Source: an uncultured Jannaschia sp. (GTDB lineage: Bacteria > Pseudomonadota > Alphaproteobacteria > Rhodobacterales > Rhodobacteraceae). Taken from it: 64,000 nucleotides of DNA. Of this stretch, positions 771 to 43,667 are shown piece after piece (position 1 is the first letter of the stretch; every line of letters starts with the position of its first letter). A program made the translations under genes and the position numbers. Under the pieces are notes generated by a model that saw nothing but the letters and a program-made list of their open reading frames with translations, was not told the origin of the DNA and did no database searches. The DNA lies in assembly GCF_947494055.1 (NCBI RefSeq), contig NZ_CANLTR010000003.1, positions 1-64,000 on the forward strand. The letters run 5' to 3'.

Positions 771-2129
771 ATGGAGATCGATTTCCGTCTGAACGGCGAG
801 GACGTCACCGCCACGACCGACGATCCGACCGCGACCCTGCTCGACTGGCTCCGAAACGAGGCCGGTCTGCCGGGCACGAAGGAAGGCTGCAACGAGGGCG
901 ATTGCGGGGCCTGCTCGGTCATCGTGACCGGCGCGGACGGAGTGCCGCGGGCGTTCAATGCCTGCATCCTCTTCCTGCCGCAGCTTGCGGGGCGCGCCGT
1001 GCGGACGGTGGAGGGGCTGACCGGGCCGGACGGCACGATGCATCCCGTGCAGCGGGCGATGATCGACCGGCACGGCTCGCAATGCGGGTTCTGCACGCCG
1101 GGCTTCGTCACGACGATGGCGGCGGCGCATGCGCGGGGCGACACCGACCACGCCGACCAGATCGCGGGGAACCTTTGCCGCTGCACCGGCTATGCGCCAA
1201 TCTTGCGCGCGGCGCGGGATATCGAGGGCGAACCGATCCCCGACCATATGCGCGACACGGCGCCCGCGCCGGCGATCCGGAGTGCACGCACGTTCCATCC
1301 GCAAAGCGCCGACGAACTGGCGGAATGGTATGTCGACCACTCCGACGCCACGCTCGTCGCCGGGGCGACCGATGTCGGCCTCTGGGTGACGAAGCAGTTT
1401 CGCGCGCTGGACGGGATCGCCTTTCTCGCCGGCTGCAACGACCTGCGGGGTGTCGCAGTGACGGACGACGCCATCGAGATCGGCGCGATGACCGACATCG
1501 AGGCGTTGCGCGCCGCGGTCGCGCCGTATCACCCGTCCTTCGGCGAGCTCCTGCGCCGCTACGGCAGCGTACAGGTTCGCAACGCCGCGACGCTCGGCGG
1601 CAACATCGCCAACGGCTCGCCCATCGGGGATTCGCCGCCGCCGCTGATCGCTCTCGGGGCGAAGCTGCACTTGCGACGGGGCGACGTGCGGCGGTCAATG
1701 CCGCTCGAAGACTTCTATCTCGATTACGGAAAGCAGGACCGCCAACCAGGCGAGTTCGTTGAGCGCGTGACGATCCCGCGGCGGGCCGACAGCCTCCTGT
1801 GCCACAAGCTGTCCAAGCGGTTCGACCAAGATATTTCCGCCGTCTGCGGCGCGTTCAACCTGCCCGAGGCGGACGGCGCACTGCGTGACGTGCGGATCGC
1901 GTTCGGCGGCATGGCGGGCATTCCGAAGCGGGCGCGTGCGGCCGAGGCGGCGCTGGAGGGGCGTGCGCGGAATGCGGAGACCCTGGCCGCCGCGGCGGAG
2001 GCGTTGGCGGAGGACTTCACGCCGCTGACGGACATGCGCGCATCGGCCGGCTACCGGTTGCAGGCGGCACAGGGGATGCTGCGGCGGCTGGCCACCGACG
2101 CGCCCTCGATCCTCACGGTGCAGGCATGA
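771..2129 (+). CDS. xdhA: Xanthine dehydrogenase small subunit XdhA (2Fe-2S / FAD)
   Basis: This subunit carries electrons from the molybdenum site of XdhB to FAD and NAD+ during oxidation of hypoxanthine and xanthine to urate. The 452-residue protein begins with a plant-type ferredoxin domain (Cys40, Cys45, Cys48, Cys65). A helical 2Fe-2S domain follows (QCGFC at 104-108, CRC at 136-138). The FAD-binding domain runs from about residue 165, with [17 protein letters not shown] as the flavin-binding stretch. This order is that of bacterial split-subunit XDH. The ATG at 771 gives the usual N-terminus, although the ribosome site is weak. The stop overlaps the xdhB start by 4 bp. Confidence 0.96.
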
Positions 2130-4456
2130 GCGTCGCAAAGCCCCTCCCGCATGAGAGTGCGCGGCTGCACGTCACCGGCACGGCGCGCTACACCGACGAC
2201 ATCCCGGCGCCGAAGGGCTGCCTGCATCTGGCTTTCGGGCTGGCGGAGGTCGCGCGGGGGCGGCTCGACGCGCTCGATCTCTCCGCGGTGCGCGAAGCAC
2301 CCGGCGTGGTGGCGGTGCTGACGGCGGAGGATCTGGACCCGATGCCGGATTGCTCGCCCTCGAACGGCGACGAGCCGCTCCTTTGCACGGGCGAGATCCA
2401 TTACGCGGGGCAGCCGCTCTATCTTGTCGTGGCCGACACGCATCTCGCGGCTCGCCGCGCCGCGCGTCTGCACGAGGCGCGCGTGACGGAGGCGCCGGCG
2501 ATCCTGACCATCGAGGACGCGGTCGACGCGGAAAGCTGGTTCGACGGCGGGCCGCGCGTCTGGACGGACGGGGACGTGGCGGCGGGGCTCGCAGAGGCGC
2601 CCCACCGGCTCGAAGGACAGATCGAGATCGGCGGACAGGAGCATTTCTACCTCGAGGGTCACGCCGCGCTGGCAATCCCCTCCGAGGCGGGGGAGATGCA
2701 CGTCCTGACCTCCACCCAGCATCCCACCGAGATCCAGCACAAAGTGGCGGAGGCGTTGGGCGTGCCGATGCACGCGGTCCGCTCCGAGGTGCGGCGCATG
2801 GGCGGAGCGTTCGGTGGCAAGGAGAGCCAGGGCAACGCGCTCGCCGTGGCCTGCGCCGTTGCCGCCGAGCGGACGGGCCGCGCCTGCCGGATGCGCTACG
2901 ACCGCGACGACGATTTCGTGGTGACCGGCAAGCGCCACGATTTCCGCGTGGCCTATGAGGTGGGCCACGACGAGGCGGGCAGGGTGTTCGCCGTGCGGTT
3001 CCTGCACTGGACGCGCTGCGGCTGGAGCCAGGACCTGTCGCTTCCGGTCGCCGACCGGGCAATGCTGCATGCAGACAACGCCTACGATATCCCTGTCATG
3101 TCGATCGAGAGCTGGCGGCTACGCACCAACACACAGTCCGCGACCGCCTTCCGTGGGTTCGGCGGGCCGCAGGGGATGCTTGGGATCGAGCGGGTGATGG
3201 ATCATGTCGCGCATGCGGTCGGGCGCGATCCGCTGGAGGTGCGGCGGGCGAACTTCTACGCGGACGCGCGGGGCGAAGGCGGCGCCTCCGGCGGGGATAT
3301 TTCGGAAGCAAAGATGCCGGCGGGCGGCACGGGCCGGACGCATTACGGGCAGGCGGTCACGGATTCCTGCCTCGGCGCACTGACGGAGCAACTGGCCGAA
3401 AGCTGCGACTATGACGGTCGGCGCCGGCGGGTGGCGGGGTGGAACGCGGCGAACCCGGTTCTGAAGCGCGGGATCGCGCTGACGCCGGTAAAGTTCGGGA
3501 TCAGCTTCACGCTGACGCATCTCAATCAGGCGGGGGCGCTGGTCCATGTCTATGCCGACGGCTCGATCCACCTGAATCACGGCGGGACGGAGATGGGGCA
3601 GGGGCTCCACTCGAAGGTCGCGCAGGTGGCGGCCGACCGCTTCGGTTGCGACCTGGCGCGGGTGCGGGTGACGGCGACGGATACCGGCAAGGTTCCGAAT
3701 ACCTCCGCCACGGCGGCCTCCTCGGGGGCGGATCTGAACGGGATGGCAGTGCGCGCCGCCTGCGACACGATCCGCGACCGGATCGCCGCGTTTCTGGCGG
3801 AAACGCATCAGGCGGAGGCGGCGTCGGTCGTCTTCGCGGAAGATGCGGTGAATGTCGGTGGCGCGACCTACCCGTTCGAAGAGGCGGCGGCGATGGCCTA
3901 TGCGGGGCGTGTCTCCCTGTCCTCCACCGGCTACTACGCCACGCCCGAGATCGAGTGGGACCGGGCGGCGGGACGGGGCCGACCGTTCTACTACTTCGCC
4001 TACGGGGCGGCCTGTTCGGAGGTGGTGATCGATACGCTGACGGGCGAGAACCGGATCCTGCGGACCGACATCCTGCACGATGCCGGCGCCTCGCTGAACC
4101 CCGCGCTCGACATCGGGCAGATCGAGGGCGGGTTCGTGCAGGGGGCGGGCTGGCTCACGACGGAAGAGCTGGTGTGGGACGAAGCGGGGCGGCTCCGGAC
4201 GCACGCGCCCTCGACCTACAAGATCCCCTGCGCCTCGGACGTGCCGGATGTGTTCGAGGTCGCGCTCTGGGACGCGCCGAACCGGGCGGAGACGATCTAC
4301 CGCTCGAAGGCCGTGGGCGAGCCGCCCCTGATGCACGGGATCAGCGTGTTCCTCGCGCTCTCGGACGCGGTGGCGGCCTGCGGGACGGGCTACCCCGCGC
4401 TCGACGCGCCGGCGACGGCGGAGCGGGTGCTGGGCGCGGTGCGGCGGCTCGGGTGA
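2126..4456 (+). CDS. xdhB: Xanthine dehydrogenase molybdopterin-binding subunit XdhB
   Basis: This is the catalytic subunit that binds molybdenum cofactor and hydroxylates xanthine. It has 776 residues, close to the usual length. The cofactor motif GGAFGGKE lies near residue 227, [11 protein letters not shown] near 338, and the C-terminal [12 protein letters not shown] carries the conserved catalytic glutamate. ATG at 2126 overlaps the xdhA stop (ATGA). Oddity: residues about 386-397 ([12 protein letters not shown]) are encoded by a 36-bp copy of an intergenic repeat found again at 16685 and 16848. It lies in a glycine-rich loop between NFYADA and THYGQ. Confidence 0.96.
3281..3316 (+). repeat. 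Copy of the GGCGGGGATATTT repeat arm, in frame inside xdhB
   Basis: The 36 bases match the arms of the composite element at 16685-16720 and 16883-16848 (reverse) at 32 of 36 positions each. The shared block GCCTCCGGCGGGGATATTT is followed by three variable bases and AAGCAAAGAYG. In those other places the sequence is intergenic. Here it is read as protein, adding a Gly/Ala/Ser-rich stretch without breaking the frame. Confidence 0.75.
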
Positions 4457-16684: not shown

Positions 16685-16883
16685 GGAGCCTCCGGCGGGG
16701 ATATTTTCGAAGCAAAGACGACCTTAACGTCCTCCTAACGCCTGTCGTGGCAAATGCGCGGCGCGGTACAGGCGGGGACGCCGATGACCGCAAGCGAAGA
16801 CGGCCCCGTCGCCCCTCCGCATGTCGGACCCGGTGGCGGGGCCCCATCGTCTTTGCTTTGCAAATATCCCCGCCGGAGGCGCC
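16685..16883 (+). repeat. Composite inverted-repeat element A with CtrA-like box and conserved core
   Basis: Two 36-bp arms face each other: 16685-16720 forward and 16848-16883 reverse, sharing GCCTCCGGCGGGGATATTT and AAGCAAAGACG. Between them lie TTAA-N7-CTAAC (16724-16739), then 25 bp on GGTACAGGC, then GCCGATGACCG. The same order and spacing occur in element B at 43462-43667. An ATG at 16784 opens a frame whose residues resemble the matching frame in element B (MT, PP, SS, KY.RRR.R.F). The element lies between the converging slyX and denD genes. Each arm is in sense orientation behind one of them. No transposase or target duplication was seen. Confidence 0.75.
16724..16739 (+). promoter_or_regulatory. 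CtrA-like box in composite element A
   Basis: TTAA, seven bases, CTAAC differs at one base from the alphaproteobacterial CtrA site TTAA-N7-TTAAC. It precedes the conserved GGTACAGGC core by 25 bases. Element B has a similar box 24 bases before the same core. Confidence 0.4.
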
Positions 16884-43461: not shown

Positions 43462-43667
43462 GAGTATTTCCGCCAAGAAGAAGGCGCTTTGAGCCTTTGT
43501 TAACGGCCCGTGGGTCAGGTGGCCCGGCGGTACAGGCTGGAGAGCCGATGACCGTCCAAGGAGAAGCCACGGTGCTTCCACCCCGGCGGGCCCTGCGTCA
43601 GGCGACTCGGTCAGCCGGGGTGACTGCGCGTTCTTCTTGGTATAAATACTCTCGCCGAAGGCTCCGC
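43462..43667 (+). repeat. Composite inverted-repeat element B inside the nuo operon
   Basis: Arms at 43462-43487 and 43651-43626 (reverse) both read GAGTATTT-N3-CCAAGAAGAA-N-GCGC. The right arm extends to 43667 with GGAGCCTTCGGCG, matching the arms of element A. Between them are TTGA-N7-TTAAC (43489-43504), GGTACAGGC 24 bases later, and GCCGATGACCG. This is the order and near-identical spacing of element A at 16685-16883. An ATG at 43548 opens a frame similar to that of element A and runs on to 43856. The element splits nuoA from nuoB. Confidence 0.75.
43489..43504 (+). promoter_or_regulatory. CtrA-like box in composite element B
   Basis: TTGA, seven bases, TTAAC is one base from the CtrA consensus TTAA-N7-TTAAC. 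It lies 24 bases before the conserved GGTACAGGC core. Confidence 0.4.

What the first reader, a model, noticed from the sequence alone, without database searches (positions are those of the whole stretch)
16685..16883. Composite inverted-repeat element repeated twice with the same internal plan
Two intergenic elements 27 kb apart (16685-16883 and 43462-43667) share one architecture: an arm, a CtrA-like box, GGTACAGGC 24-25 bases later, GCCGATGACCG 10 bases after that, then the arm in reverse. The arms form long inverted repeats (36 bp here, 22 of 26 fixed positions in the other) around about 130-145 bp. There is no transposase, and the core is more conserved than needed for a passive repeat. 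It could be a small mobile element, a structured RNA, or a portable regulated promoter with a short ORF.
Basis: seen in the sequence. Interest (0 to 1): 0.78.

Follow-up and report, generated by a model that had tools for sequence, protein, structure and literature searches.

The report
Guide-like RNA with dispersed genome sites
The two repeats look like genes for a small structured RNA, and each RNA carries in two pieces the sequence of some two dozen short sites scattered over the genome; in a sister species where one of the RNA genes is broken, the sites that match it have changed far more than those of the intact one.

Summary
The elements are two members of a small-RNA gene family of Rhodobacterales without an Rfam match, also on plasmids of other Alpha- and Gammaproteobacteria. 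Plan: TTAA box, 5' hairpin, 11-nt tag*, terminator-like hairpin. The arms are copies of a dispersed site, xyz-TATTT-NNN-tag. This genome has two site families and two RNAs; each RNA holds both halves of its own family's site: loop = xyz (150 of 161 5' arms, 131 of 137 3' arms; shuffles at most 66 and 56) and tag* = tag, with differences at positions 4-8 nearly all G in the RNA, A in the site. In the nearest relative, 7 sites of the intact RNA have 5 substitutions in 133 positions; 11 sites of the RNA that lost half its hairpin have 45 in 209 (P=1.5e-6). In 11 of 15 genus members a site inside xdhB matches that genome's own RNA. So the arms look like targets of a bipartite guide-like RNA, kept by selection that depends on it. 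Inferred only: transcription, pairing with DNA rather than RNA, protein partner, purpose. A mobile element or short-ORF cassette fits worse.

The parts
16685..16721 (+). 5' arm of element E1: GC module GCCTCCGGCGG plus family I site GGATATTT-TCG-AAGCAAAGACG (site 16699-16720)
16724..16738 (+). TTAA-N7-CTAA, CtrA-like box of the E1 promoter
   Evidence: phased TTAA enrichment over 172 elements
16751..16756 (+). presumed -10 box of E1 (positions -14 to -9 from the hairpin)
   Evidence: column composition over 172 elements; inference
16763..16791 (+). 5' hairpin of the E1 RNA, loop GGGA = xyz (GGA) of family I sites
   Evidence: covariation; loop-arm match; fold
16792..16802 (+). tag* AAGCGAAGACG of the E1 RNA
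16802..16843 (+). GC-rich terminator-like hairpin of E1
16847..16883 (-). 3' arm of E1 in inverse orientation (site 16848-16869)
43462..43483 (+). 5' arm of element E2, family II site GAGTATTT-CCG-CCAAGAAGAAG
43489..43503 (+). TTGA-N7-TTAA box of the E2 promoter
43527..43555 (+). 5' hairpin of the E2 RNA, loop GGAG = xyz (GAG) of family II sites
43556..43566 (+). tag* CCAAGGAGAAG of the E2 RNA
43579..43622 (+). GC-rich terminator-like hairpin of E2
43630..43651 (-). 3' arm of E2, family II site with one mismatch
3295..3316 (+). solitary family I site (one mismatch), in frame inside the xdhB-like ORF 2126-4456

Best explanation
Each element is a gene for a small noncoding RNA (some 80-100 nt by prediction) that works as a bipartite guide. 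Shown by sequence: the strand forms a conserved 5' hairpin; its tetraloop and the 11-nt single strand after it reproduce the two outer parts of a dispersed 22-bp site, xyz-TATTT-NNN-tag; TATTT and NNN are not in the RNA. Inferred: the RNA recognises its sites by pairing with the strand opposite the site (tag* over 11 nt, usually with one or two G.T/U wobbles, and the loop over 3-4 nt), while TATTT is read by an unlinked host protein, much as a PAM is; the target most likely is DNA. The complex marks or tethers some two dozen places per RNA, many of them gaps between convergent genes, and the arm beside the RNA promoter gives feedback on the RNA. Purpose (nucleoid organisation, or insulation of convergent genes) is the weakest step. 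A CtrA-type box suggests control by the CtrA regulon.
For: Own genome: 35 exact sites, 18 GGA..AAGCAAAGACG and 17 GAG..CCAAGAAGAAG, 0 mixed, and two RNAs whose loops (GGGA, GGAG) and tags match one family each. Last three loop bases = xyz in 150 of 161 5' arms and 131 of 137 3' arms, 2000 shuffles max 66 and 56; arms had been chosen by tag similarity, not by xyz. tag* against 5' arm: at positions 4-8, 168 of 178 differences are G in RNA, A in site (position 8 alone 114 of 115), as wobble pairing of the RNA would allow. Covariation: stem pair 10/15 paired in 171 of 172 (shuffle max 100), pair -2/pos2 in 170 of 172 (max 156). Natural knock-out: in the nearest relative G017 the E2 gene lacks 17 bases with the first half of the hairpin; 11 E2-type sites have 45 substitutions of 209 there, 7 sites of the intact E1 have 5 of 133. 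The xdhB site matches an RNA of its own genome in 11 of 15 genus members; summed score 181, shuffled mean 141, 0 of 20000 reach it.
Against: No transcript was seen and no protein partner found. 21 of 193 cores have no arm, some of them chance. At positions 9-13 the differences are of mixed kinds (at least 23 of 52 G/A). 4 of 15 xdhB sites match no RNA found (G011, G016, G001, G004), and G009 has a decayed one. In G017, 7 of the 11 E2-type sites share G at tag position 4 where the own genome has A, so part of the divergence may be a concerted shift of the code rather than decay; without that column it is 37 of 198 against 5 of 126 (P=7e-5), in the TATTT box alone 22 of 88 against 2 of 56 (P=5e-4). 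The shuffles ignore relatedness. One natural knock-out is one event. Two 2-mismatch cores counted for G017 were not listed and not read.
Confidence: 0.6

Rival explanations
1. A trans-acting sRNA that pairs with RNA: the target is a 3' UTR (or antisense read-through transcript) that carries the reverse complement of the arm, 5'-rc(tag)-NNN-AAATA-rc(xyz)-3', with the unpaired AAAUA as processing or protein site.
For: G.U wobbles are usual in RNA-RNA pairing; with a rough gene proxy 6 of 10 own sites with both neighbours resolved lie between convergent genes, where one of the two mRNAs would carry the complement; Hfq is conserved in roseobacters (passage of PMC4809877).
Against: The 5' arm (160 of 193 elements) has the orientation of the RNA, and the xdhB site is in sense with xdhB in the 15 genomes read, so the complement would be only in antisense transcripts; on two small plasmids read whole the only site found is that upstream arm.
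Confidence: 0.27
2. A non-autonomous mobile element (MITE or REPIN-like): the arms are terminal repeats, solitary arms are remnants or copies, the RNA is a passenger or the guide of an unlinked transposase.
For: Inverted arms around a core; an inverted pair of sites without an RNA (L296); dispersed copies; positions empty in some relatives, for example G011 at slyX-epimerase and at several family II places; an ISAs1 transposase gene lies next to one plasmid copy.
Against: NNN varies between copies while 19 flanking positions are nearly fixed; positions are shared with the nearest relative in altered form; the same xdhB and slyX-epimerase positions hold different families in different species; 36 elements lack the 3' and 12 the 5' arm.
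Confidence: 0.08
3. The RNA is a decoy: a sequence-specific protein binds both the arm and the look-alike RNA.
For: RNA and site have the same sense.
Against: Two site families with different xyz and tag coexist in one genome and the codes differ from species to species, which one protein would hardly read; differences at positions 4-8 are one-way G/A.
Confidence: 0.05

Closest known systems
IS110/IS1111 bridge RNA or seekRNA
   Same: 70-100 nt RNA with two short separate segments that together specify a DNA site (PMC11187229, passages read)
   Different: There the two segments match opposite strands and the RNA serves the transposase encoded beside it; here both match the same strand, no transposase gene is beside E1 or E2, and one RNA has about 17-25 sites
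naRNA4 / REP325 with HU in E. coli
   Same: Small RNA from a palindromic repeat that contacts DNA at cruciform sites and connects DNA segments (PMC6907758, two passages)
   Different: That complex is said not to involve extensive Watson-Crick pairing; here RNA and site sequences change together over the order
REP elements (GTAG- or CGTC-tagged)
   Same: Short intergenic repeats with palindromic parts, singly or in inverted pairs
   Different: No GTAG; CGTC only as the end of the family I tag read backwards, not in family II; each family is matched by one RNA gene. Definition from the abstract of PMC3733652 in a listing
TnpB/TldR and Cas12-type guide RNAs
   Same: T-rich motif 5' of the guide-matched sequence; hairpin followed by guide (recalled; TldR seen in a listing only)
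   Different: Here the loop also specifies bases upstream of the T-rich motif; the RNA is smaller than TnpB guide RNAs (recalled); no such gene seen beside the elements read
Trans-acting sRNAs of Rhodobacteraceae
   Same: Own promoter, terminator-like hairpin, seed-like single strand
   Different: The seed varies between species in step with dispersed sites; no Rfam match

Membership tests
IS110/IS1111 seekRNA | transposase gene next to the RNA | tested here: not met
   E1 and E2 lie beside slyX/epimerase and nuoA/nuoB; none among the 7 genes of a 5.6-kb plasmid; neighbours of four further loci are metabolic or transport genes. One plasmid copy has an ISAs1 (not IS110) transposase beside it. 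Not every locus was annotated
IS110/IS1111 seekRNA | guide segments match opposite strands of the target | tested here: not met
   both match the same strand
MITE / REPIN mobile element | copies alike throughout the repeat, recent insertions | tested here: not met
   NNN free, 19 positions nearly fixed; shared older positions; no search for fresh insertions between strains was made
GTAG/CGTC REP | GTAG or CGTC at one end | tested here: not met
   absent from family II; families of other genera looked at by eye only
Rfam RNA families | match to a covariance model | tested here: not met
   none at gathering score in the window; at E up to 5 only microRNA or Clostridiales-2 scores far below their cut-offs for E1 and one plasmid copy
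naRNA4-like nucleoid RNA | acts with HU and joins DNA segments | not testable with these tools
   needs pull-downs and contact maps
TnpB/TldR guide RNA | binds a TnpB-family protein | not tested
   no whole-genome search for such a protein was run
CtrA-controlled promoter | TTAA-N7-TTAA near -35 | tested here: inconclusive
   TTAAC/GTTAA in 118 of 172 elements against 4 of 960 control windows, peaks at -29/-30 and -40/-41; but a two-half pattern with one variable base in only 7 of 172 (0 of 960); motif and activator position from passages of PMC6180460; binding untested

The most novel reading that the evidence does not exclude
A new class of RNA-guided DNA-binding system: a tiny bipartite guide RNA, run with a host protein, that serves dozens of dispersed chromosomal sites, with guide and sites co-evolving so that each species has its own code and several codes run in parallel in one cell.
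Probability: 0.5. Interest if true: 0.95.

Novelty: categorically new. Interest (0 to 1): 0.86.

Why it matters
If the pairing is with DNA, this is a housekeeping RNA-guided DNA-targeting system in a large order of bacteria, with a very small guide and a ready-made test bed: a natural knock-out, several codes per genome, and plasmid-borne versions. If the pairing is with RNA, it is an unusual case of one sRNA changing in step with some two dozen fixed target sites. Either way it gives a reason for the species-specific GAGTATTT/GGATATTT repeats of this genome and its relatives, and makes their function testable.

Tried and rejected
Short ORF from the core ATG: length and sequence not conserved. 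Rfam: nothing. Mobile element: see rivals. Partner protein from the neighbourhood: clusters of neighbours around 131 loci, of which I annotated eight proteins of four loci by Pfam (acyl-CoA dehydrogenase, GST, thiolase, CoA-ligase type, ABC transporter parts); the other clusters were not annotated. Arms only as a closing RNA stem: 36 elements lack the 3' arm yet keep tag* like tag. Literature: 10 full-text searches, not all of them for this element, listed no description of it; the library lacks most subscription papers. Paracoccus denitrificans sRNA Intergenic 134 (84 nt; PMC5107571, section with Table 1 read) lies 2.7 kb from a core in another strain's record and is listed on the other strand: not matched, left open. 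Errors mended: a wrong pattern (7 for 8 free bases) made its nuo part void and made one search return nothing; both redone. Searches used wrong spacings and are void.

Full report
Observation. Both elements are as described, except that 6 bases, not 10, separate GGTACAGGC from GCCGATGACCG. E1 lies between convergent slyX and an epimerase gene (Pfam SlyX and Epimerase); E2 lies between nuoA and nuoB (gene names from sequence, recalled). The genome holds just these two exact cores.

Distribution. At up to 2 mismatches the core is in 114 of 194 genomes, own included, 0-5 per genome in the family; outside the family most hits are single 2-mismatch ones, with G131 (same class) an exception that has three near-exact cores. 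One viral contig matched, without arms. A 40-nt query matched 22 plasmid records, among them Paracoccus, Thalassococcus, rhizobia, Azospirillum, Thiothrix and Nitrosococcus, the weakest perhaps by chance; the E1 query matched one Legionella plasmid; a 40-nt query matched no phage record.

Plan of the element. Of 193 core hits chosen by a core pattern, 124 have both arms, 36 only the 5', 12 only the 3', 21 none; an arm had to match tag* at 7 of 10 positions behind TATTT or TACTT. Order: arm, TTAA box, hairpin, tag*, GC hairpin, inverse arm. In the 172 with an arm the stem pair 10/15 is T-A 88, G-C 75, A-T 7, C-G 1, C-A 1 (171 paired, shuffle max 100); pair -2/pos2 is G-C 95, A-T 38, G-T 36 and 3 others (170 paired, max 156). 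Pairs beyond -2 show no covariation, pair 3/23 is no better than shuffles, and the remaining stem pairs hardly vary or were fixed by the pattern. TTAAC/GTTAA occurs before 118 of 172 against 4 of 960 shifted windows, TTAA starting mostly at -29/-30 (90) and -40/-41 (45); A at -13 (111) and T at -9 (127) look like a -10 box, which would put the start just before the hairpin. MFE folds of E1 and E2 show the 5' hairpin and a GC hairpin. No transcript was seen.

The arms are a dispersed site. The genome carries xyz-TATTT-NNN-tag in two families: 18 exact GGATATTT-NNN-AAGCAAAGACG and 17 exact GAGTATTT-NNN-CCAAGAAGAAG, no mixed ones, arms of E1 and E2 included; 24 more places have one mismatch to the degenerate pattern, some of them chance; the reversed control gave 2. 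NNN varies. GC hairpin modules before xyz occur with both families. With a rough gene proxy on 30 of these loci, the upstream gene has the sense of the site in 17 of 21 resolved cases and the downstream gene the opposite sense in 14 of 16; 6 of the 10 with both resolved are convergent. One site lies in frame inside the xdhB-like gene.

RNA and site match in both parts. The last three loop bases equal xyz in 150 of 161 5' arms and 131 of 137 3' arms (2000 shuffles, max 66 and 56); the shuffles ignore relatedness, but rare loops (GACA, GAAG, GCGG, GGCA, GAGA) match too. tag* differs from the 5' arm at positions 4-8 in 178 cells, 168 of them G in the RNA and A in the site; at position 8 114 of 115, with 3' arms 95 of 101. 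At positions 9-13 there are 52 differences of mixed kinds, at least 23 of them G/A. One-way G/A differences are what wobble pairing of the RNA with the complement of the site allows. By eye the rule also holds in Nitrosococcus, Azospirillum and a Rhizobium plasmid; the Legionella copy matches without the G/A step.

Natural knock-out. G017 is the nearest relative by the proteins compared. Its slyX-epimerase gap has an intact E1. Its nuoA-nuoB gap has E2 without 17 bases that hold the 5' half of the hairpin; a search at up to one mismatch with positions 3 and 23 free finds only E1 in G017, though two unlisted 2-mismatch hits were not read. Sites compared were chosen as intact in the own genome, so the test is family I against family II within G017. 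Of 12 family II flanks searched, 10 gave strong matches in G017; 8 aligned without gap, and with two E2 arms and one site found by synteny they give 45 substitutions in 209 fixed positions (own 2). Left out: one locus with an indel (L298), one that did not align (L319), one whose site is absent (C3 140240), two flanks without strong match; L313, known in G017 only through the site pattern, has two substitutions. The seven family I sites of contig C3, found by synteny or protein and not by the site pattern, give 5 in 133 (own 1); one of them has a 4-base spacer in G017 and was counted as two substitutions (without it 3 in 114). Fisher P=1.5e-6, 9e-7 without that site. Against a simple decay: 7 of the 11 share G at tag position 4 where the own genome has A, so the code may have shifted first. 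Without that column the counts are 37 of 198 against 5 of 126 (P=7e-5), and in the box GAGTATTT/GGATATTT alone 22 of 88 against 2 of 56 (P=5e-4). With the looser site pattern 11 of 18 family I and 3 of 12 family II loci had a detectable partner in G017. G019 has an intact E2 in the same gap with its own tag.

Same place, species' own code. In 20 genus genomes the xdhB position holds a site in 15, a decayed one in G009 and none in 4. In 11 of the 15 it scores 12.8 or more of 14 against an RNA of the same genome (G/A counted 0.8); G011, G016, G001 and G004 score 5.4-11.4. The sum is 181, shuffled mean 141, maximum 174, 0 of 20000 at or above. In the slyX-epimerase gap G006 holds a site of one of its own families, G019 an inverted pair, G011 nothing (by eye). 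So places persist while codes change.

Reading. A site kept at 19 of 22 positions, mainly where an RNA with the same two segments is intact, is best explained as a target of that RNA. The sense of the 5' arms and of the xdhB site favours DNA over mRNA as target; this is inference. TATTT, absent from the RNA, would be read by a protein or serve melting. Clusters of the 5' arm at 44, 55-58, 62-68 and 76-79 bases from the hairpin hint at feedback on the promoter; not tested. A nucleoid or insulation role is a guess by analogy with naRNA4 (PMC6907758, passages).

Novelty. I rate the kind as categorically new because the tested features (same-strand bipartite match, dispersed sites that follow the RNA, no linked enzyme at the loci read) separate it from the nearest kinds I know; a description in papers not held here cannot be excluded. 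Papers seen: passages of PMC6907758, PMC6180460, PMC4046655, PMC11187229, PMC4809877; one section and passages of PMC5107571; all others in listings only.

Noticed in passing
window 2126-4456 (xdhB-like), site 3295-3316: In-frame insertion of a GC module plus site at one place of XdhB in 15 of 20 genus genomes, with species-specific sequence.
   Followed up: yes
L296 (own genome, contig C1 near 233450): Inverted pair of family II sites 11 bases apart without an RNA gene between them.
   Followed up: no
arms, e.g. L306, L309, L313, L319: A few GC hairpin modules (GCGAGGGGCCAGCCCCTCGCGCTCCCC, GGGGGCTGTCTGCCCCCGGACCCCC, GCCTCCGGCGG) precede sites of both families and are seen in other genera too; their own role is unknown.
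   Followed up: partly
L330-L332, L326, L339: On several small plasmids the core lies some hundreds of bases from the replication gene; on two plasmids read whole (L337, L338) one site was found, upstream of the RNA.
   Followed up: partly
L338 10947-14130: Three tandem tyrosine recombinase genes on the Phaeobacter plasmid that also carries the core, like recombinase-in-trio elements (recalled).
   Followed up: no
L075, L120, L048: Three of the four loci annotated have the RNA gene beside acyl-CoA dehydrogenase genes; groups of 26-27 of 131 loci share neighbours.
   Followed up: partly
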